The notes beneath the pieces were generated by a model. It was not told the DNA's origin and made no database searches. It worked only from the letters and a program-made list of their open reading frames with translations. Both the position numbers and the translations under genes were made by a program. A stretch of DNA of 33,687 nucleotides. Origin: Bermanella sp. GTDB taxonomy: Bacteria; Pseudomonadota; Gammaproteobacteria; Pseudomonadales; Oceanobacteraceae. Below are positions 55-29,908 of the stretch, piece after piece (positions within the stretch are counted from its first letter, which is position 1; each line of letters starts with the position of its first letter). The stretch lies in contig NYTP01000088.1 in NCBI GenBank assembly GCA_002683575.1, positions 1 through 33,687 of the forward strand, given 5' to 3'.

Positions 55-984
55 TTATTTAGCTTTCTTTGCGGTGGTTTTCTTTGCTGTAGACTTTTTC
101 GCTGTTGTTTTCTTAGCGGTGGTCTTTTTAGCAGTGGTTTTCTTCGCTGTGGTTTTTTTAGCAGTCGTCTTTTTAGCGGTGGTTTTCTTTGCTGTAGACT
201 TTTTCGCTGTGGTTTTCTTAGCGGTGGTCTTTTTAGCAGTGGTTTTCTTCGCTGTAGACTTCTTAGCAGTGGTCTTCTTCGCTGTGGTTTTCTTCTCAGC
301 GGTTTCGTCTTCTGCTTTTACCGCTGCTTTTTTAGCAGTGGTTTTTTTCGCGCTTGTTTTCTTAGCGGTGGTTTTCTTCGCAGTGGTTGCTTTAGCGGCT
401 GTTTTCTTAGCGGCTTTGGCTGGTTCTGCTTTTACTTCAGCTTTGGCAGCCTGAGGTTTTACACCACTTTTAACGAATTCAGCGGTTTCAGCCATGCGCT
501 TTTTCTGCGCTGCATCTAACTTGCCAATTCGATCAAGGTTTTGCAGACGCTTAAGCTCTTTTTTCGCTTCGGCGATCTGTTTTTTCAGTTCTTTCTTGTC
601 TTGCTGTTCTTGCTTAAGCTTTTCTTGCTCTTCTTTATAGCGCGCTTCACGCTCTTCTTGCTGCTTGATCAGGTCTTGCTGAAGTTTGCGGCGCTCTTCT
701 TCGCGAGCCGCGCGCTCTTCAGCACGTTCTGCTTCAAGTGCTTCAATTTCTGCCTTACGTGCTGCACGCTCGTCTTCCAAGCGCTTTTGTTCCTCTGCAT
801 CAACTTGAGGCTCAGCTTTGGCTTTAACCACTTCCTTAGAATCATCGCTGCCGCCACCTAGTAGAGCTTCCAATGCCGCGATTTGATCGACAATGTTCTC
901 TGGTTGGCTTTCTTGCTGCTTGATGATTTTTTTATAGGAAGGGCGTTTCTGTGATACTTTTGAACGCTTGCCAGGTTTAGCCAT
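55..984 (-). CDS. AlgP/histone H1-like protein with Lys/Ala/Thr-rich KTTAKK repeat C-terminal domain
   Basis: 309-aa ORF; charged coiled-coil-like middle ([29 protein letters not shown]) and C-terminal [12 protein letters not shown] repeats typical of AlgP/H1-like proteins. Confidence 0.8.
61..410. repeat. Imperfect 15-bp tandem repeat encoding (K)TTAKK pentapeptides
   Basis: Recurrent gtggttttcttAgc / gtggtcttttt units; 71-150 and 176-255 match at 79 of 80 positions (offset 105 bp = 7 x 15). Confidence 0.85.
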
Positions 985-18488: not shown

Positions 18489-19730
18489 ATGGCGATGAAA
18501 TATATTGCCTGCGCGGCGGTCCCCTTATTGATGGCAGCCTTGCCAGCTCAAGCGGTGACTGTAGAGCAGCTCAACCAGCAAGTTCAGCAAATGAATAAAC
18601 GCATTTCTGAGCAAAATAACAAACTGCGCATCAATGGTTTTGCCAGTTTTGGTATGGCTATTTCTGATGAAGAAATGGCGTATAACGGTGTTAATGATGA
18701 AGTAACGTTTAATCGCTTCAGTAAAATGGGCGTTCAAATGTCATTCAACATTGATGCTAAAAATAGCGTTGTAATGCAGCTTGTCTCTCGTGGTAATGAA
18801 GGTTGGAATACAAACGCTGAGTGGGCCTACTTCAAGCATGACTTTGGCAGTGGTTTTTCAGGTAAAATTGGCCGCATACGTCTACCCGCATACCAGCTAT
18901 CTGAGTTCTTGGATGTTGGGTACGCCACTCCTTATGCTCAAGTGCCAGCAGAAACCTATGATTCGCTCGAACCTTTTGCCAACATGGAAGGTGTGGATTT
19001 ATCCTATAGCATGGACCTAGGCGACAATACGGCTCTGTTTCAAGTTGTATATGGACGTGCTAAAGATGATGAGTTTGACCTTAAAGACATAATAGGTTTA
19101 AGCGGTGTTCTTCAAGCTGACACATGGAATGTACGTGTTGCATTATCTCAAGCCAGTGTAAGCATAATACAAGCAGATGCTGCAGCAGTTGTTACCAACT
19201 TCTATCAAGCAGAAACAGAAGATCTTGATGGCAATTTTGCAAGTGTTGGCTTTACCTATGACCCAGGCGATTTGTACTTTACCACTGAATACACAACACT
19301 TGAGGCCGACGGCCAAGTTGTTGATGCCGACTCCATGTATGCCACATTTGGTTACCGTATGGGTCGATTCATGCCTACGCTAACTTATGCTATGGCTGAG
19401 TCTCAAGACGACGATGAACGTGAGTTAGCACCAGCTCAAGCTGCTGCAATAGCAGGAGCCTCTGGTGGCGCATTCACAACTGCTGATGTACTAACAGGTG
19501 CTGCCGGTATACAAGCCGCGAGCGATCGAAACACTACGCGAATAGGATTGGGCCTCAGATATGATATGTCTCCAGGTGCTGCTCTAAAAGTTCAGTATGA
19601 CATAATTGAAGTTGACGATGATAAGTCCGGGTTATTCGATGACACTGCATGGGCAACGAATGTCCTAACCGCTGGTGAAAATCCTGACGGTGCCAACATC
19701 CTAACTATTTCAATCGACACAGTCTTTTAA
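18489..19730 (+). CDS. Outer-membrane porin-like beta-barrel protein with N-terminal coiled-coil
   Basis: Signal peptide ending AQA; VEQLNQQVQQMNKRISEQNNKL coiled-coil followed by GFASFG and alternating beta-strand pattern; terminal Phe. Confidence 0.8.
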   Translation: MAMKYIACAAVPLLMAALPAQAVTVEQLNQQVQQMNKRISEQNNKLRINGFASFGMAISDEEMAYNGVNDEVTFNRFSKMGVQMSFNIDAKNSVVMQLVSRGNEGWNTNAEWAYFKHDFGSGFSGKIGRIRLPAYQLSEFLDVGYATPYAQVPAETYDSLEPFANMEGVDLSYSMDLGDNTALFQVVYGRAKDDEFDLKDIIGLSGVLQADTWNVRVALSQASVSIIQADAAAVVTNFYQAETEDLDGNFASVGFTYDPGDLYFTTEYTTLEADGQVVDADSMYATFGYRMGRFMPTLTYAMAESQDDDERELAPAQAAAIAGASGGAFTTADVLTGAAGIQAASDRNTTRIGLGLRYDMSPGAALKVQYDIIEVDDDKSGLFDDTAWATNVLTAGENPDGANILTISIDTVF

Positions 19731-19738
19731 GGGAGGAG

Positions 19739-20167
19739 ATGATTATGAAAAATTTAACATTTAAACTTCTAACAGCTCTTACCTTAGCCAGCTGTTTCGC
19801 ACTCACTCACGCAGGATCTGTAGTTGTAGTAGGTAAAGGCAGCCCAATCGGTGCATCCAACGAAAGCGATGTTGTGAAAGCCTTCTTAGGTAAAAAGAAA
19901 GACCTAGGTGGTGTCTCTGTCATACCGTTGGATCAAGGTGAAGGCAACCCTGCCCGTAATGATTTTTATGCCAATGTGGTGAAAAAATCAGAAGCGCAGC
20001 TTAAGTCTTACTGGTCTCGCTTGATTTTCACCGGTAAAGGCCAAGCCCCTCAAGTGGTGGGCGGCGATGCCGAAGTGAAAAACATGGTGGCCACTAATCC
20101 AAACATCATTGGTTACATTGATGAATCTGCCGTGGATGGTTCAGTAAAGGTTATTTATAAGCCTTAA
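19739..20167 (+). CDS. Short phosphate-ABC-transporter-like periplasmic substrate-binding protein
   Basis: Signal peptide; VVVVGKGSPI...VKAFLGKKKDL...NPARNDFYANVVKKSEAQLKSYWSRLIFTGKGQAPQVV resembles PstS-like small PBP proteins. Start 19739 or 19745. Confidence 0.75.
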   Translation: MIMKNLTFKLLTALTLASCFALTHAGSVVVVGKGSPIGASNESDVVKAFLGKKKDLGGVSVIPLDQGEGNPARNDFYANVVKKSEAQLKSYWSRLIFTGKGQAPQVVGGDAEVKNMVATNPNIIGYIDESAVDGSVKVIYKP

Positions 20168-20316: not shown

Positions 20317-22020
20317 TCACTTAAATATAAAATAAATAAATCCAGCAATGATAACCGCTTCTATCACCGCTAACCCTTGCCAAAATCTCAAAGGATTTCG
20401 CTGTGATAGGGGTACAAACGCGGATTGTTTATATTCAGTATTTGGGCGCTGTAAATCAAATACAAATTCAGACATGGCATCTTGGCGATGTTCAGGCAGA
20501 GGTGATAATGCACGCTTCAATGCTTTATCCATCCAAGCTGGCACCATTGGGTTAAACTGTATAGCTGCTTGATACTTTAAACTTGATAGTTTGCGTTGGT
20601 CTTTAAGTTTTTCTAATTGATCACCAAAAGGCAACTTGCCTGTTAGCACTTCATACACGACTAATGCCAAACTAAATAAATCTGACTTTTTAGTTTTACG
20701 CATTCTAAAACGGGTTTCGGGCGCACTGTATACCGCAGTTCCTAATATATCGTCTCGATCGAATGGCGTATCAATTTCTTCAACCCCAGCAGCATAACAA
20801 GAACCAAAATCAATGATTTTAGGTATGCCATCAGCGGTTAACAAAATATTATCCGGCTTAATATCTTGATGTAAAATATCTTTGCGATGCAGTGCACGAA
20901 TACCGCGGCTAATTAATTCAGCTAGTCGCACAACCTCTTTAATATCTGGCTTTGGATTTTCTTTCATCCACTGCTCTAATGTTAAACCATCCACGTATTC
21001 CATTAAGGTATACAGGGCCGTCTTTTTTTTAGGCTCGATAATTTTTACCACATAGGGACTGTCAATACGCTTACCGATCCACTGTTCTAATACAAAGCGC
21101 TCAATATAGGCGGGATCATCTTCAAAATTAACAGAAGGCGTTTTTAAAATTAATCGCTCTCCTTCAATATTTTTAACTAAATAGACTTGGCTCCTTGGAC
21201 TTTCGTGTAGAACTTTAACAACCGTCAACCCATCTAAAATCTGTCCAACCGACAGCAGTGGAGGAAAAGACAAGTCACTTAATTTTTGATAGATTTCTTG
21301 ATTATTAGCATCAGGTAATGCATCCACACGAACTAACTGGCAACTCACATTATCATTAGTACCCGCAGCTAATGCTTTTTCATTTAAGTGTAGGCAACTG
21401 GCATTTAAATCTGAGCTAGTTTCTATTTCTGCCTGTATATCTTTAGGGCAAATAAAATCGTGTACACCATCGGTACTTAAAAAGAAAACATCACCCTGTT
21501 CGATTTCAAACTGCTGAAAATCCATTTCAAGATGATTATCCATCCCCATTGCACGAGATAAGTAGACAGTGTCTTTATTGATGCTAATTGAGTGATCCGT
21601 AGTTAGGCATTCAAAACTACCGTTTCTTAAACGGTAAATTCGAGTATCACCAATGTGAAAAATATAAGCGGTTTGTGACTTTAAGATTAACGCACTTAAC
21701 GTACTCACATGTCCTTTAATCTGGCTTTGACCTACTAGCCAACGGTTTAATGCTAATACAATTTTTTGCCCTGCCGTTTTTACTGACCAAGCATCAGGCG
21801 TTGCATAATAATCACTAATAAAGTTACGCACACACATTTCACTGGCTTCTTTGCCAGCTTCAGCTGCACTTACACCATCGGCAATCACAGCCACCGCACC
21901 TTTTATCGTTAAGGCAGGCTGATCTGGTATACGCATACCAATACAGTCTTCATTCTGTGGCTTTAAACCTGCACTGGTTGCCTGACCGACCGTTAATGCC
22001 AACTGTGCCTCTAAGTGCAT
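20317..22020 (-). CDS. Bifunctional PP2C-family phosphatase / Ser-Thr protein kinase with C-terminal TM helix
   Basis: PP2C motifs (ADGVSAAEAG, HIGDTRIYR, STDGVHDF, NDNVSC) then kinase motifs (LILK, HQDIKPDNILL, IIDFGS, SAPE) and a hydrophobic C terminus. Confidence 0.92.
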   Translation of the reverse strand: MHLEAQLALTVGQATSAGLKPQNEDCIGMRIPDQPALTIKGAVAVIADGVSAAEAGKEASEMCVRNFISDYYATPDAWSVKTAGQKIVLALNRWLVGQSQIKGHVSTLSALILKSQTAYIFHIGDTRIYRLRNGSFECLTTDHSISINKDTVYLSRAMGMDNHLEMDFQQFEIEQGDVFFLSTDGVHDFICPKDIQAEIETSSDLNASCLHLNEKALAAGTNDNVSCQLVRVDALPDANNQEIYQKLSDLSFPPLLSVGQILDGLTVVKVLHESPRSQVYLVKNIEGERLILKTPSVNFEDDPAYIERFVLEQWIGKRIDSPYVVKIIEPKKKTALYTLMEYVDGLTLEQWMKENPKPDIKEVVRLAELISRGIRALHRKDILHQDIKPDNILLTADGIPKIIDFGSCYAAGVEEIDTPFDRDDILGTAVYSAPETRFRMRKTKKSDLFSLALVVYEVLTGKLPFGDQLEKLKDQRKLSSLKYQAAIQFNPMVPAWMDKALKRALSPLPEHRQDAMSEFVFDLQRPNTEYKQSAFVPLSQRNPLRFWQGLAVIEAVIIAGFIYFIFK

Positions 22021-24002: not shown

Positions 24003-24018
24003 TGGCATATGCGTTGCT
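24003..24018 (+). promoter_or_regulatory. Putative sigma-54 (-24/-12) promoter for porin 24122
   Basis: TGGCATATGCGTTGCT, close match to TGGCAYRNNNNTTGCW. Confidence 0.75.
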
Positions 24019-24121: not shown

Positions 24122-25282
24122 ATGAAAAAAACTTTACTGGCTACCAGCATTGCAAGTATCGCTTTAAGTTCTGCTATAAGTGTACAAGCCCAAAGCTTTG
24201 ATGAGCTTGTAAAAGGCGGCAGTGTTGATTTGAACTTCCGCTACCGTGTTGAAAGTGCCGATGTACAAGGTGGTGCGGATGCAGCACTAGCTAATACCTT
24301 GAAATCACGGGCGACAATTAAAACCGGCAACATGTATGGTTTCTCAGCATTGGTTGAAGGTGATAACGTTTTTCAACTAACCGACGACTTTTTTGACGGC
24401 GGTGATAATGGCAATGCAAACACCGAGTACGATTTGATTCTTGATCAAGAAACCACTCAAATAAACCAGGCATATCTTCAATATTCAGGTTTCTCTTCAA
24501 ATGTTAAGCTAGGTAATCAGCGTATTAATCTTGATAACCAGCGCCATGTAGGTGGTGTTGCTTTCCGTCAAGATGAAGCCACTTTCGATGCTATTTCGAT
24601 CGAAAATAAAGCCTTAGATAACACCACTATATTTGCCGCTTTTGCAAACAATCTAAACAATATCAAAAATGATAATGTCGAAGCAGATATTTCATTATTA
24701 AATGTTAAATACAGCATTAACAAAGACCTAGCTACAAGTGCCTTTTATTACAGAATTGATCCTGAGGCTGGCTCAAAATTAGATACATTTGGCCTTCGCG
24801 CAACAGGGATGGCTGCAGGCTTCGGCTTTGAAGCAGAAGTTGCAACCCAAGACAACGAAACCAATGACACTCTTTATTACCACTTAAACGGCTCTAAAAA
24901 AATTGGAGCGGTAAAAGCGACATTAGGTTATGAAGTTATGGGCAGTGACGATGGCGAAGCATCATTTAATACGCCCTTAGGAACTAATCATAAATTCCTA
25001 GGCTGGAGCGATGCTTACCTCAGTGCAGCTCAATGGGGAGCTAACGGTATCGAAGACATCTATTTTTCAGCGGTTACAAAAGTATCAAGTGTTAAGTTAG
25101 TTGGGCAGATTCACAACTTTAGTGCTAATGAAGGTAGTGCTGATTTAGGTACTGAACTAGGCTTTTTAGCCGCGAAAAACTTTGGTACTTACGGCGCTAG
25201 CTTTAAAGTTGCACAGCTTTCAGGTAGCGACACAAAAGAAGACACAACTAAAATCTGGTTAACCGCCAGCGCTAAGTTCTAA
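24122..25282 (+). CDS. Alginate-export-family-like outer-membrane porin
   Basis: Signal peptide ending VQAQ; FRYRVESADV, LKSRATIKTG, KLGNQRINLDNQRHVGGVAFRQDEATFDAI resemble alginate-export porins; terminal KF. Confidence 0.8.
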   Translation: MKKTLLATSIASIALSSAISVQAQSFDELVKGGSVDLNFRYRVESADVQGGADAALANTLKSRATIKTGNMYGFSALVEGDNVFQLTDDFFDGGDNGNANTEYDLILDQETTQINQAYLQYSGFSSNVKLGNQRINLDNQRHVGGVAFRQDEATFDAISIENKALDNTTIFAAFANNLNNIKNDNVEADISLLNVKYSINKDLATSAFYYRIDPEAGSKLDTFGLRATGMAAGFGFEAEVATQDNETNDTLYYHLNGSKKIGAVKATLGYEVMGSDDGEASFNTPLGTNHKFLGWSDAYLSAAQWGANGIEDIYFSAVTKVSSVKLVGQIHNFSANEGSADLGTELGFLAAKNFGTYGASFKVAQLSGSDTKEDTTKIWLTASAKF

Positions 25283-25295
25283 CTGCACTTAACAG

Positions 25296-25319
25296 TGAAA
25301 TGGCATTCGTGCCATTTCA
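25296..25319 (+). other. Perfect UUCG-tetraloop hairpin between porin and first P-box protein
   Basis: TGAAATGGCA-TTCG-TGCCATTTCA; no strong T run follows, so it may be a weak terminator or stability element. Confidence 0.65.
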
Positions 25320-25373
25320 TTGTCCCCTAGCTACATCCATCCAACTTTAGCAACCATGTAAAAGGACATTAGA

Positions 25374-26171
25374 ATGAAAGTTCTCATTTTAATTTGCACC
25401 CTTGCCTTAAGCTCATTTTCGATTCCAAGCTTTGCCGAAATCAATAGCCTATCTCAAGCCATTAACGAATCGGGTCGACTGCGCATGTTAAGTCAGCGTA
25501 TGGCAAAAGCGTATTTATTAAAAGCCATGGATATACAACCTGAGAAAGCCACGCAACAATTTACTAGCAGCTTTCAAAAATTTGAATCCAACCTTACTGA
25601 TTTAGGTCTATTTTCTATTGAACTTGGTTCACCTGCCGCGATAGATGCCAGCTTAACGGCCATACAAAACCAGTGGTCCATATATAAATCCGAATTAAAC
25701 AAGCAAGCAGACCAAAGCAGCACTGCAAATATTTTGGCCTTAAGTGATGAAACCTTACAAACGTGTGAAATGTTAGTCAGTGAATTAGAAAAAACCGCCG
25801 AACGAAATAGTGCACGCTGGGTCAATTTATCTGGTCGCCAACGTATGCTCAGTCAACGCATTGCCAAGTTGTACAGTGCCATCAGCTTATCAGGTGATAC
25901 TCAGCGCTATGATGATGAATTAAAACAAGCCATCGCTGAATTTGATCAAGCTTTAAACGAATTAATCAACAGCCCAGATAACACTCACTTTGTTAATCAC
26001 AAACTGAAAAAGGTTGCCACCCAATGGAATTTTTCAAAACAAGGTTTCAAAGTTTTAGATAAAGGTAGTAGTACGCCATTGGTCATTTCCATGACCACCG
26101 AGAGCATACTAAGACAAATGAACGATATTACTGCCTTATACGAAGAAATTGACCATAACAAAAATGGATAA
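25374..26171 (+). CDS. Secreted PilJ-N/NarX-like P-box protein, copy 1
   Basis: Signal peptide ending SFAE; two P-box-like motifs AINESGRLRMLSQRMAKAYL and VNLSGRQRMLSQRIAKLYSA; no kinase, HAMP or methyl-accepting domain in the ORF. Confidence 0.82.
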   Translation: MKVLILICTLALSSFSIPSFAEINSLSQAINESGRLRMLSQRMAKAYLLKAMDIQPEKATQQFTSSFQKFESNLTDLGLFSIELGSPAAIDASLTAIQNQWSIYKSELNKQADQSSTANILALSDETLQTCEMLVSELEKTAERNSARWVNLSGRQRMLSQRIAKLYSAISLSGDTQRYDDELKQAIAEFDQALNELINSPDNTHFVNHKLKKVATQWNFSKQGFKVLDKGSSTPLVISMTTESILRQMNDITALYEEIDHNKNG

Positions 26172-26252
26172 TGAAACTAACTTTATTCCCCTTTTTATTA
26201 TGACTACTCCTTATATCCTTTAATCATGCCCCGACTTAGGTATTGCTCGAAA

Positions 26253-26290
26253 AGTAGAGAAAGCATCACACTGCTACTCCTTTCTCTACT
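26253..26290 (+). other. 11-bp perfect inverted repeat upstream of copy 2
   Basis: AGTAGAGAAAG-(16 nt)-CTTTCTCTACT, ending 14 nt before ATG 26305. Confidence 0.65.
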
Positions 26291-26304
26291 ATGGGTGGTC
26301 TAAC

Positions 26305-27105
26305 ATGAAACCAAAAACATTCATGCTAAGCGTGCTATTAATCATTTTCAGTATTCCTACTTATGCACAGATCAACTCACTTTCACAGGCTATCAATGAA
26401 TCTGGTCGCTTGCGCATGCTCAGTCAACGTATTGCAAAGACCTATATTTTATCTCAACTTGATATTCAACCTGATAAAGCGCAGCAGCAATTTGAGCAAA
26501 GCTCTTTGTTGTTCAAATCTAATATTTTGCAATTAAAGCAGTTTAACAGTTCCATTAATCAGCCCACTATAAACAGTTATATTGAAAACATTGAACAAAT
26601 ATGGCGTTCTTATTCAGGCGCATTTAACCAACCATTTGATGGCCAAGCTTTAAGCAATATTCTCATGTTAAGCGATGCCACCATGCTCGCCAGCGAAGAT
26701 TTAGTTATCCAATTTCAAGCAGTCTCCAATACGAATAGTGCACACCTTGTCAGTATTGCAGGTCGCCAGCGTATGTTAAGCCAGCGCATTGCCAAGCTTT
26801 ATTCCGCCATGAGCCTGTCTGACCATGATCCACAACTATCCAGTGAACTTTTAGAGGCCATAAGTGAATTTGATACCGCGCTTAACCAATTAATACAAAG
26901 CAAACGCAATACACATTTCATCAGCTACAAGTTAAAACAGGTTAGTGCACAATGGAACTTCTCAAAACAAGGTTTTAAATCACAACATAACGGTAACAGT
27001 ACGCCTTTAGTTATTGCTGTAACAACTGAAAGTATTTTGCAGCAAATGGATGATATTACCGGCCTATATGAAGAGATAGATCAAAGCAGTAAAGCGGCAC
27101 TTTAA
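26305..27105 (+). CDS. Secreted PilJ-N/NarX-like P-box protein, copy 2 (paralog of 25374-26171)
   Basis: Same architecture: QINSLSQAINESGRLRMLSQRIAKTY and IAGRQRMLSQRIAKLYSAMSLS; shared C terminus (QWNFSKQGFK...TPLVI...TTESIL.QM.DIT.LYEEID). Confidence 0.82.
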   Translation: MKPKTFMLSVLLIIFSIPTYAQINSLSQAINESGRLRMLSQRIAKTYILSQLDIQPDKAQQQFEQSSLLFKSNILQLKQFNSSINQPTINSYIENIEQIWRSYSGAFNQPFDGQALSNILMLSDATMLASEDLVIQFQAVSNTNSAHLVSIAGRQRMLSQRIAKLYSAMSLSDHDPQLSSELLEAISEFDTALNQLIQSKRNTHFISYKLKQVSAQWNFSKQGFKSQHNGNSTPLVIAVTTESILQQMDDITGLYEEIDQSSKAAL

Positions 27106-27172
27106 CCCTCTTCTATTGGTGCAAATCAATAGCCAGACATTCACGCACCATTTTCAAGCAACGCCCTTCCTG

Positions 27173-27199
27173 CATTGCGCACCACAATGGTTCGCAATG
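27173..27199. promoter_or_regulatory. Putative NtrC-type enhancer site within a long palindrome
   Basis: CATTGCGcACCA-caa-TGGTtCGCAATG (11 of 12 arm pairs); core GCACCACAATGGTTC differs from GCACYANNNTGGTGC at one position. Centre about 129 nt upstream of the predicted nirB start site. Confidence 0.6.
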
Positions 27200-27288
27200 T
27201 TTCTTGTTCGCCCTCATTTCAATCTTTTTATCCTTCCCCTCCCTCAAAAAAACACACTAAACCCTTTAAAAACAATAAGTTAAGAACA

Positions 27289-27304
27289 TGGCACGGCCAT
27301 TGCT
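27289..27304 (+). promoter_or_regulatory. Sigma-54 (-24/-12) promoter for nirB
   Basis: TGGCACGGCCATTGCT fits consensus TGGCACGNNNNTTGCW exactly; predicted start about 27315, 47 nt before ATG. Confidence 0.88.
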
Positions 27305-27361: not shown

Positions 27362-29908
27362 ATGACAAACAAACAAAACCTCATCGTGATTGGCAATGGC
27401 ATGGTGGGTCATAAATTTTTAGAAAGCCTTGTGGAATCAGAACAGGCACCCAACTTTAATATTACCGTTTTATGTGAAGAACCTCGCCCAGCATATGACC
27501 GTGTTTACTTATCGTCATACTTTTCAGGTAAAACGGCTGAAGACTTGAGTCTTGTGAGTGATGGCTTTTTTGAAACGAACCACATTCAATTAAAACTAAA
27601 CTGCAGCGCTGAACACATCGACCGACAAGGCAAAACCGTTACCACACAACAAGGCGAAATACTCAGCTATGACAAATTAGTATTGGCTACAGGCTCGTAT
27701 CCATTTGTACCACCCGTACCAGGGCACGAACGTGAAAATTGTTTGGTCTATCGCACCATCGAAGACTTAGAAGCCATAACTGCTGGAGCCAAAAATTCTA
27801 AGGTAGGTGTCGTTGTTGGTGGTGGACTGTTAGGCCTTGAAGCAGCAAACGCATTAAAAGATTTGGGCCTTGAAACTCATGTAGTGGAATTTGCGCCTCG
27901 CTTAATGGCCGTTCAAGTAGATGAAGCTGGCGGTGCATTATTAAAAAGTAAAATCCAAGAGCTTGGTGTACGGGTGCACACTAATAAAAACACACAAAAT
28001 ATTACGGACGGCGATACCTGTAAACATAAAATGGAATTTGCCGATGGTGAAAGCCTTGAAACCGACCTTATTTTATTCAGTGCAGGCATAAGACCTCAGG
28101 ATGCCATTGCCCGTCGCTGTGATTTAGAACTTGGGGCGCGCGGTGGTATTTCAATCAACAATCACTGCCAAACATCTGATGACAATATTTACGCCATTGG
28201 AGAATGTGCACTTTGGGGCGGCATGATTTATGGCCTTGTGGCGCCAGGCTACAACATGGCTAAAGTAGCAGCACAACATATATCAAATTCAGGGGCTGCC
28301 AGTTTTGAAGGTGCGGACATGAGCACCAAATTAAAATTAATGGGCGTCGACGTTGCATCCATTGGTGACTGCCATGCTCGTAGTGAAGGGGCGTTAAGTT
28401 ATGCCTACACCGATGAAGTCAATCAGGTTTATAAAAAAATTGTTGTAAGTGCAGATAAAAAATTACTGCTAGGTGCGGTGATGATTGGTGACGCCGAAGA
28501 TTACGGCAACCTACTACAAATGGCGCTAAACAATATTGAACTGCCAGCCTCACCTGAGGCGCTTATTCTGCCGACACTCGATGGGGCAGCTAAACCCATG
28601 CTAGGACCAGACGCCTTACCCGATAGCGCACAAATATGTTCATGCTACGACGTATCAAAAGGCGCGATTTGCTGCACTGTACAAGATGGTGCGCAAACCC
28701 TTGGTGATATAAAAGCCGAAACAAAAGCTGGCACAGGTTGCGGTGGTTGTACCGCGTTAGTGACGCAAGTCATGAACAGCGAACTGGCAAAACTGGGTGT
28801 GGAAGTTAATACCGATATCTGTGAGCATTTTGCCTATACTCGCCAAGATATTTACAACATTGTTCGCATTGAGGGCATAAAATCTTTTAGCGAATTATTA
28901 TCAAAATACGGTAAAGGCCATGGCTGTGAAATTTGCAAACCATTAGTGGGCTCTGTGTTAGCTTCTTGCTGGAACGAATACGTATTAGACAATAAACACA
29001 TTGGTTTACAAGACACCAACGATATCTACCTAGGTAACATGCAAAAGGATGGCACTTATTCCGTTGTGCCACGAATTCCAGGAGGCGAGATTACCCCCGA
29101 TGGTTTATTGGTGATAGGCCAAGTCGCAAAAGACTTTGGTTTATATACCAAGATAACCGGCGGCCAGCGCATTGATTTATTTGGTGCCCAGCTTCATGAG
29201 TTACCACAAATATGGGAGCGACTTGTGGCTGCCGGATTTGAAACAGGTCATGCCTATGGTAAATCCTTACGCACGGTAAAATCCTGTGTTGGCTCAACCT
29301 GGTGTCGTTTTGGTGTGGATGATTCCATGGGAATGAGTATTGAATTAGAAAATCGATACAAGGGTTTGCGCTCTCCACACAAAATCAAATTTGCCGTATC
29401 CGGTTGTACCCGTGAGTGCGCTGAAGCACAGTCTAAAGACGTAGGCGTGATTGCCACCGAAAATGGCTGGAACTTATATGTCTGTGGTAATGGCGGTATG
29501 AAACCTCGCCATACGGATTTATTAGCACAAGGCTTGGATAAAGAAACCCTCATCAAATACATTGATCGTTTTTTACTGTTTTATGTAAAGACCGCCGATC
29601 GCCTTCAACGCACCAGCGTTTGGATGGACAACCTTGAAGGGGGCTTAGATTATCTTAAGCAAGTGGTTATTGAGGACTCACTGGGTATGGCTGAGGAGTT
29701 CGAGCGTCAAATGGAAGCCGTTGTCGAAAGCTATCAGTGTGAATGGAAAACCACCATAGAATCCCCAGATAAATTGAAGCGCTTTAGCCACTTTATTAAT
29801 GCCGACAAACCCGATGAAAATGTTCAGTTTGTAAAAGAGCGTGGTCAGATTCGCCCTGCCAGTGAAAGTGAACGAATGAAAAAAGATAACTTAATAGCCA
29901 TTAGCTAA
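27362..29908 (+). CDS. nirB: NAD(P)H-dependent nitrite reductase large subunit
   Basis: FAD/NAD-binding N terminus, BFD-like [2Fe-2S] Cys motifs (CSCYDV...GTGCGGC), siroheme/[4Fe-4S] motifs (VKSCVGSTWCRFG, AVSGCTRECAEAQSKDVGV). ATG lies at 27361, so coordinates are as in the supplied track to within one base. Confidence 0.95.
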   Translation: MTNKQNLIVIGNGMVGHKFLESLVESEQAPNFNITVLCEEPRPAYDRVYLSSYFSGKTAEDLSLVSDGFFETNHIQLKLNCSAEHIDRQGKTVTTQQGEILSYDKLVLATGSYPFVPPVPGHERENCLVYRTIEDLEAITAGAKNSKVGVVVGGGLLGLEAANALKDLGLETHVVEFAPRLMAVQVDEAGGALLKSKIQELGVRVHTNKNTQNITDGDTCKHKMEFADGESLETDLILFSAGIRPQDAIARRCDLELGARGGISINNHCQTSDDNIYAIGECALWGGMIYGLVAPGYNMAKVAAQHISNSGAASFEGADMSTKLKLMGVDVASIGDCHARSEGALSYAYTDEVNQVYKKIVVSADKKLLLGAVMIGDAEDYGNLLQMALNNIELPASPEALILPTLDGAAKPMLGPDALPDSAQICSCYDVSKGAICCTVQDGAQTLGDIKAETKAGTGCGGCTALVTQVMNSELAKLGVEVNTDICEHFAYTRQDIYNIVRIEGIKSFSELLSKYGKGHGCEICKPLVGSVLASCWNEYVLDNKHIGLQDTNDIYLGNMQKDGTYSVVPRIPGGEITPDGLLVIGQVAKDFGLYTKITGGQRIDLFGAQLHELPQIWERLVAAGFETGHAYGKSLRTVKSCVGSTWCRFGVDDSMGMSIELENRYKGLRSPHKIKFAVSGCTRECAEAQSKDVGVIATENGWNLYVCGNGGMKPRHTDLLAQGLDKETLIKYIDRFLLFYVKTADRLQRTSVWMDNLEGGLDYLKQVVIEDSLGMAEEFERQMEAVVESYQCEWKTTIESPDKLKRFSHFINADKPDENVQFVKERGQIRPASESERMKKDNLIAIS

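What the first reader, a model, noticed from the sequence alone, without database searches (positions are those of the whole stretch)
25374..27105. Tandem secreted proteins with two NarX/PilJ-like P-box motifs each, and no signalling domain
Both ORFs are exported proteins of about 265 aa with two copies of a motif (AINESGRLRMLSQRxAK and xxxGRQRMLSQRIAKLYSA) resembling the NarX P-box (AINKAGSLRMQSYRL, recalled from memory). NarX binds nitrate between two P-box helices of a dimer. Having two motifs in one chain suggests a single-chain pseudo-dimer that could bind nitrate or nitrite. They lie between a porin and nirB in a nitrate-assimilation island and carry no kinase, HAMP or chemotaxis domain. 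They might act as periplasmic nitrate sensors, buffers or delivery proteins, or partner the nearby Ser/Thr kinase or an unlinked histidine kinase. The function is inferred.
Basis: partly seen in the sequence, partly recalled or inferred. Interest (0 to 1): 0.85.

Follow-up and report, generated by a model that had tools for sequence, protein, structure and literature searches.

The report
Secreted single-chain nitrate-binding protein pair
Two neighbouring genes in a marine bacterium (Bermanella) encode exported proteins that look like a nitrate sensor cut loose from its kinase, with both halves of the nitrate pocket in one chain; relatives sit inside nitrite-reductase operons or next to nitrate regulators and porins in several unrelated bacteria, but I found no report that anyone has described or tested them.

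Summary
ORF1 (25374-26171) and ORF2 (26305-27105) are secreted, effector-less proteins made of two PilJ domains (PF13675, E 2e-28 and 3e-27). The ligand residues of both boxes (GxxR) are invariant or nearly so across 75 homologues. Confident AlphaFold2 models (pLDDT 94) show two four-helix bundles. Over the full chain they resemble NasR's nitrate sensor (TM 0.61-0.64), not the tandem PilJ receptor (TM 0.26, ORF2 model), as a single-chain pseudo-dimer should. Context adds more: the gene forms a unit with an outer-membrane porin; it sits between nirB and nirD in nine of 23 positive genera of one family, beside narXL or an mcpN-like chemoreceptor in Pseudomonas/Stutzerimonas, and co-occurs with NarK-type transporters. 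The same module is fused to an ANTAR antiterminator in Variovorax. Conserved sigma-54 promoters precede the porin and nirB. Most homologous loci, however, show no nitrate gene within 10 kb. Nitrate/nitrite binding is likely (about 0.75). What binding is used for, capture for uptake or sensing through a membrane partner, is not settled. I found no paper on the free secreted form. Verdict: new variant of a known kind.

The parts
25374..26171 (+). ORF1: secreted tandem-PilJ protein, 265 aa
   Evidence: ORF; two PF13675 stretches, E 2.3e-28; AlphaFold2 pLDDT 94.5, pTM 0.90; homologues at the same place in five other Bermanella genomes
25374..25436 (+). ORF1 signal peptide (MKVLILICTLALSSFSIPSFA)
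   Evidence: sequence; no lipobox; no later hydrophobic segment in 74 of 75 homologues
25458..25508 (+). ORF1 box 1 (AINESGRLRMLSQRMAK), helix 1; predicted half of the nitrate site, G34 and R37
   Evidence: conservation; helix 26-51
25824..25868 (+). ORF1 box 2 (NLSGRQRMLSQRIAK), helix 5; predicted other half, G154 and R157
   Evidence: conservation; helix 145-173
26305..27105 (+). ORF2: second secreted tandem-PilJ protein, 266 aa, paralogue of ORF1
   Evidence: ORF; PF13675 E 2.6e-27; AlphaFold2 pLDDT 93.9, pTM 0.89; tree
26305..26367 (+). ORF2 signal peptide (MKPKTFMLSVLLIIFSIPTYA)
   Evidence: sequence
26389..26439 (+). ORF2 box 1 (AINESGRLRMLSQRIAK)
   Evidence: sequence; G34 and R37 invariant in alignment A3
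26752..26796 (+). ORF2 box 2 (SIAGRQRMLSQRIAK)
   Evidence: sequence; G153 and R156 invariant in alignment A3
24122..25282 (+). outer-membrane porin, relatives match Alginate_exp (PF13372); conserved partner gene
   Evidence: relatives immediately upstream of the family gene in Bermanella and Pseudomonadaceae; an Alginate_exp porin also lies between two family genes in Flavilitoribacter
24003..24018 (+). sigma-54-type promoter before the porin (TGGCATATGCGTTGCT)
   Evidence: 1 mismatch to TGGCACN5TTGCW; present before the porin in five of five Bermanella loci that have it
25292..25323 (+). perfect 14-bp hairpin between porin and ORF1
   Evidence: RNA fold of 25270-25376, z -4.29, none of 200 shuffles as stable
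27289..27304 (+). sigma-54-type promoter before nirB (TGGCACGGCCATTGCT)
   Evidence: exact match; exact matches also before nirB in the five other Bermanella loci
27362..29908 (+). nirB, NADH nitrite reductase large subunit
   Evidence: TIGR02374 1129.5 bits
22167..23645 (-). NarK-family nitrate/nitrite transporter (NNP)
   Evidence: TIGR00886 287 bits, just under its cut-off of 311.7
20317..22020 (-). PP2C phosphatase-Ser/Thr kinase fusion with C-terminal hydrophobic helix
   Evidence: PF13672 and PF00069

Best explanation
Each protein is a soluble periplasmic nitrate (possibly nitrite) receptor. An internal duplication has joined two NarX/McpN-type four-helix bundles in one chain, so that the two GxxR boxes (helices 1 and 5) form one binding site without pairing with another chain. 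It is made with an outer-membrane porin, probably under nitrogen control (sigma-54 promoter), and serves nitrate acquisition. My leading guess is that it captures nitrate that enters through the porin and keeps it available to the inner-membrane NarK/NNP transporter. Shown here: domains, conservation, model, gene order and co-occurrence. Inferred: the ligand, the binding, and what binding does.
For: PilJ domains in both halves; the family profile finds the nitrate-bound receptor McpN (8e-12) and NarQ (1.7e-4) among solved structures. Both GxxR pairs are invariant in the whole-protein homologue set, whereas in P. aeruginosa PilJ, which does not bind nitrate, the box is lost (PMC6381276). Models match NasR over the full chain (TM 0.64 and 0.61, prob 1.00) and McpN over one half (TM of target about 0.75), but not tandem PilJ (TM 0.26, ORF2 model). 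Tandem PilJ with both boxes is fused to ANTAR next to nrtA, NNP, nirB and nasA genes in Variovorax. nirB-X-nirD gene order in nine genera of one family. Beside narXL in Pseudomonas/Stutzerimonas and near mcpN-like MCPs. Co-occurrence with NNP: 27 of 29 genomes with the gene against 13 of 29 without; among order-level genomes 8 of 9 against 0 of 13, p 3e-5. Porin partner in Gammaproteobacteria and in a Bacteroidota genome.
Against: No binding data. Most homologues (40 of 50 loci with good flanks) have no nitrate gene nearby. One complete Bermanella genome (G002) keeps nirB and NNP but lacks the gene and the porin, so it is not needed for assimilation as such. Not every PilJ domain binds nitrate. 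The NasR likeness is structural only: profile comparison with NIT-ANTAR proteins finds no sequence relation. Arg-Arg distance in the model not measured. The co-occurrence test is not corrected for phylogeny.
Confidence: 0.5

Rival explanations
1. Sensor adaptor: the nitrate-loaded protein docks on a membrane receptor (PilJ-type histidine kinase, NarX, McpN-like MCP or another inner-membrane protein) and changes its output, as periplasmic GltB does for GtrS or cytoplasmic NreA for NreB.
For: Next to narXL or mcpN-like genes in Pseudomonas/Stutzerimonas; divergent neighbour of a NasT-like receiver-ANTAR gene in L131; NasT not found in ten of ten Bermanella genomes although it is found in related genera, so these genomes may need another nitrate input; the own genome holds an unlinked PAS-histidine kinase with a strict N-box.
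Against: No sensory gene is adjacent in Bermanella or in the nirB-X-nirD operons; the gene lies with structural genes and a porin; where an ANTAR-PilJ fusion exists nitrate sensing is already covered.
Confidence: 0.3
2. Periplasmic protein with a PilJ fold that binds another small anion or no ligand, for example a porin-associated envelope protein; nitrate linkage is secondary.
For: Porin pairing also occurs with no nitrate gene nearby, e.g. Pseudomonas L062, L069 and L081 beside glycerol genes; 40 of 50 loci show no nitrate genes; tandem PilJ of P. aeruginosa does not bind nitrate (PMC6381276).
Against: The residues that contact nitrate in McpN and NarX are among the most conserved positions; conserved nirB-X-nirD operons; co-occurrence with NNP.
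Confidence: 0.17
3. Remnant of a sensor kinase that lost its output and persists by chance.
For: No effector domain.
Against: The free form is the rule in 75 relatives from several proteobacterial orders and Bacteroidota, with intact frames, both sites conserved and conserved operon position.
Confidence: 0.03

Closest known systems
McpN nitrate chemoreceptor sensor domain (P. aeruginosa, PDB 6GCV)
   Same: PilJ four-helix bundle, N-box with GxxR, best profile hit in the PDB (8e-12); each half superposes (TM of target about 0.75)
   Different: McpN is a membrane chemoreceptor that needs two chains to form the site; here both halves are in one soluble secreted chain with no signalling domain
NarX/NarQ sensor domains
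   Same: P-box; box 1 of both ORFs carries the NarX-like GxLR form
   Different: Kinases with two membrane helices; site at a homodimer interface
NasR NIT domain (PDB 4AKK)
   Same: Single chain, two bundles, proposed nitrate site between helices 1 and 5; full-chain structural match TM 0.61-0.64
   Different: Cytoplasmic, fused to ANTAR; no sequence relation by profile comparison with NIT-ANTAR proteins and no PF08376 hit
PilJ pilus chemoreceptor periplasmic region (7ZJR)
   Same: Two PilJ domains in one chain
   Different: No N-box, no nitrate binding (PMC6381276), and the ORF2 model does not superpose over the full chain (TM 0.26)
ANTAR-tandem PilJ proteins of Variovorax and relatives (L135, L136)
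   Same: Same tandem module, 30% identity over 244 aa with both boxes
   Different: No secretion signal seen (cytoplasmic by inference), fused to an RNA-binding ANTAR domain
NrtA/NasF periplasmic nitrate-binding proteins; NreA
   Same: Soluble separate nitrate-binding proteins (analogy of role)
   Different: Unrelated folds

Membership tests
PilJ domain family PF13675 | Profile score above the curated cut-off | tested here: met
   99 and 95.6 bits against 26.6; two stretches in each protein
Nitrate-binding PilJ domains (N-box) | [IVL][ND]xAGxQRML[ST]Q around the ligand Arg | tested here: inconclusive
   GxxR and most positions met in all four boxes; the strict pattern is not met in any (S for A in three boxes, L for Q in both box 1 copies, S for N in ORF2 box 2). 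A relaxed pattern is met twice in 54 of 75 homologues
Nitrate-binding PilJ domains (N-box) | Binds nitrate | not testable with these tools
   needs purified protein
NarX/NarQ-type sensor kinases | Membrane anchor, HAMP, histidine kinase core | tested here: not met
   no such domain; no later hydrophobic segment
NIT family PF08376 (NasR sensor) | PF08376 profile match | tested here: not met
   no match; hhalign with NIT-ANTAR proteins probability 2%
NasR-like single-chain pseudo-dimer (architecture, not family) | Two bundles side by side in one chain | tested here: met
   TM 0.64 and 0.61 to 4AKK_B over 273-293 columns, against about 0.37 when one bundle alone matches (McpN) and 0.26 for PilJ
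NasR-like single-chain pseudo-dimer (architecture, not family) | The two Arg point at one pocket | not testable with these tools
   model coordinates not returned
Periplasmic substrate-binding proteins | Bilobal alpha/beta fold | tested here: not met
   all-helical models

The most novel reading that the evidence does not exclude
A widespread, undescribed class of periplasmic nitrate-binding proteins: a two-component-sensor ectodomain duplicated, fused into a single-chain dimer and freed from the membrane, working with a dedicated outer-membrane porin (and a NarK-type transporter) in nitrate acquisition, in effect a solute-binding protein built on a sensor fold.
Probability: 0.35. Interest if true: 0.78.

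Novelty: new variant of a known kind. Interest (0 to 1): 0.62.

Why it matters
Periplasmic nitrate sensing is attributed to membrane kinases and chemoreceptors, and nitrate uptake to ABC binding proteins or MFS carriers. A free, secreted, single-chain version of the sensor site that sits inside nirB-nirD-nasA operons and beside porins means that a conserved step of nitrate acquisition or sensing may have been missed. It is directly testable: a soluble protein with two predicted key arginines. It could also be a simple scaffold for nitrate biosensors.

Tried and rejected
Ser/Thr kinase as partner: kept with the transporter in G002 without the proteins, so not specific. Membership in the NIT family: rejected by Pfam and hhalign. 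PilJ-like arrangement of the two domains: disfavoured by structural search. Lipoprotein: no lipobox. First ANTAR search of the own genome was uninformative (controls silent); repeated with a NasT-like protein that does ring in sister genera. NIT hit in the own genome (C124) was marginal and not confirmed by Pfam. ABC-transporter neighbours (25 loci) are a mixed superfamily and were not counted as nitrate-linked. Low-identity NasA hits (25-27%) in Pseudomonas were treated as other molybdoenzymes. Literature searches for a free secreted PilJ protein found nothing.

Full report
WHAT IS THERE. ORF1 (25374-26171, 265 aa) and ORF2 (26305-27105, 266 aa) are intact, same-strand genes between a porin (24122-25282) and nirB (27362-29908). 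Each starts with a Sec-type signal and has no other hydrophobic segment, no lipobox and no signalling domain. Pfam finds PilJ (PF13675) twice in each (E 2.3e-28, 2.6e-27), and the halves of each chain align to each other (E 4e-10 and 3e-8). NCBIfam gives only a weak local hit of ORF1 to NarQ (1e-7, far below that model's cut-off). The window lies in a genome assembly of 158 contigs, 89% complete; the nearest named hits are Bermanella.

THE MOTIFS. In McpN one nitrate sits on the dimer axis, held by R61 with G58, A59 and M62 in contact, and R61A abolishes binding (PMC6381276). In NarX/NarQ the motif is G-x-x-R (PMC8199190). Both boxes of both ORFs keep GxxRM. In 27 homologues found by whole-protein search G34, R37, G154 and R157 are invariant; four more divergent or decayed hits (L030, L031, L034, L035) were left out, and in them the boxes are partly or wholly lost. 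In 75 homologues from the genome collection G34 and R37 are invariant, G154 is kept in 72 and R157 in 74; that set was recruited with patterns over part of the boxes. Bermanella box 1 has L at position 36 (the NarX form) where most members have Q (the McpN form).

THE FOLD. AlphaFold2 gives pLDDT 94.5 and pTM 0.90 for ORF1, 93.9 and 0.89 for ORF2: eight helices after the signal, box 1 in helix 1 and box 2 in helix 5. In the PDB, one half matches McpN (TM of target 0.73-0.76, prob 1.00). The best full-length match is the NasR antiterminator (4AKK_B, TM 0.64 and 0.61 by query length, prob 1.00), whose proposed nitrate pocket includes helix 1 and helix 5 residues (PMC7496416). The tandem PilJ receptor region does not superpose over the full length (TM 0.26, ORF2 model). 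Foldseek E-values are weak for helical bundles (none below 0.001), so I rely on TM and probability. Thus the two bundles are predicted side by side, as a single-chain pseudo-dimer requires. I could not measure the Arg-Arg distance. NIT-ANTAR proteins show no profile similarity, so the NasR likeness is of architecture and not of family.

THE SAME MODULE WITH AN OUTPUT. In Variovorax L135 and L136 a protein with an ANTAR domain carries a C-terminal tandem PilJ with both boxes, 30% identical to ORF1 over 244 residues, next to nrtA, NNP, kinase, nirB and nasA genes. Relatives of it recur beside NNP, kinase or nirB genes in further genera. Where this module has an output domain in these loci, it is a nitrogen-type RNA antiterminator.

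GENE NEIGHBOURHOODS. X stands for the family gene. (a) Bermanella: kinase, NNP, porin, X, nirB, nirD, FAD protein, nasA; in one species (G004) X follows an NNP-kinase pair and not the porin. (b) The family of genome G139 (one genome per genus): of 61 genomes, 23 have a match, and in nine genera X lies between nirB and nirD on the same strand, with a nasA match following in eight of them; Aquabacterium and two Variovorax show the same order, and a Comamonadaceae MAG shows X-nirD-nasA at a contig end. Several of these carry a twin-arginine start. (c) Pseudomonas/Stutzerimonas: narX-narL-(porin)-X, and in L061, L066, L092 and L100 an McpN-like MCP within about 1-1.5 kb. (d) napA (L088); nrtA with a NasT-like gene divergent from X (L131). 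(e) Porin-X alone in many Pseudomonas, and X-porin-X in the Bacteroidota species Flavilitoribacter nigricans. (f) Many solitary genes in housekeeping surroundings. Of 50 loci with at least 5 kb on both sides, 10 have a nitrate marker, 11 the porin, 5 both.

CO-OCCURRENCE. Of 58 relatives, 29 have X. NirB is in 28 of 29 with X against 18 of 29 without (p 0.0024); NNP in 27 of 29 against 13 of 29 (p 1.3e-4); among the 22 order-level genomes NNP is in 8 of 9 with X and 0 of 13 without (p 3e-5). In a class-level sample, after setting aside the own genome and one likely fusion (453-aa frame), 5 of 6 against 53 of 180 (p 0.012). These tests ignore shared ancestry.

REGULATION. An exact sigma-54 -24/-12 element lies before nirB in all six Bermanella loci examined, and a one-mismatch element before the porin in the five that have it; the count in the window alone is not above chance, the positional conservation is the evidence. 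A 14-bp perfect hairpin separates porin and ORF1 (z -4.29). A 100% complete Bermanella genome (G002) keeps nirB, NNP and kinase but lacks porin and X: they behave as one unit, dispensable for the pathway. NasT is found in related genera but in none of ten Bermanella genomes. The own genome also has an nrtABC-type nitrate ABC transporter.

HOW IT MOST LIKELY WORKS. Shown: secreted tandem-PilJ protein, both site halves conserved, side-by-side model, nitrate and porin linkage. Inferred: nitrate (or nitrite) binds between helices 1 and 5 of one chain (about 0.75). Position in structural-gene operons and with a porin favours a role in acquisition (capture or delivery to NNP) over sensing through a membrane partner, but only modestly; narXL/mcpN linkage and the absence of NasT in Bermanella favour sensing. 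A partnership with the Ser/Thr kinase has no specific support.

KNOWN OR NEW. The domain and the site are known; PilJ domains were reported in kinases, chemoreceptors, diguanylate cyclases and regulators (PMC6381276). I found no report of the free, secreted, single-chain form (open-access library only). New variant of a known kind.

Noticed in passing
L135:2914-4272, L136:2807-4339, also L162, L165, L168, L169, L173, L174: ANTAR proteins with a tandem PilJ module in Variovorax and related genera beside NNP, kinase or nirB genes: apparent NasT-like regulators with a built-in PilJ nitrate module.
   Followed up: partly
genus of the window (G000-G009): NasT-like ANTAR protein not found in ten Bermanella genomes although it is found in related genera; how nitrate induction works there is open.
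   Followed up: partly
window 24003-24018 and 27289-27304: Sigma-54 promoter elements conserved across Bermanella before the porin and before nirB.
   Followed up: yes
window 25292-25323, 27172-27200: Stable perfect hairpin between porin and ORF1, and an inverted repeat before the nirB promoter that may be an NtrC-type enhancer site.
   Followed up: no
L006:1384-3189 (own genome contig C47): Unlinked PAS-histidine kinase with a strict N-box (LVNQAGHQRMLSQ): a candidate nitrate-sensing kinase in the same genome.
   Followed up: no
window 18489-20167; L087:2776-4376: A porin gene followed by a small secreted protein (called PstS-like here by eye; no Pfam match) recurs near the NNP/kinase genes in Pseudoalteromonas denitrificans.
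   Followed up: no
window 20317-22020: PP2C phosphatase fused to a Ser/Thr kinase with a C-terminal membrane helix, conserved next to the NNP transporter in several lineages.
   Followed up: no
L127:2697-5134: Three tandem copies of the family in a Bacteroidetes MAG.
   Followed up: no
L123, L132, L134, L135, L136, L138: Members from Burkholderiales and relatives begin with twin arginines, suggesting Tat export of the folded protein.
   Followed up: partly
window 55-984: Lysine/alanine-rich AKKTTAKK repeat protein, histone H1-like.
   Followed up: no
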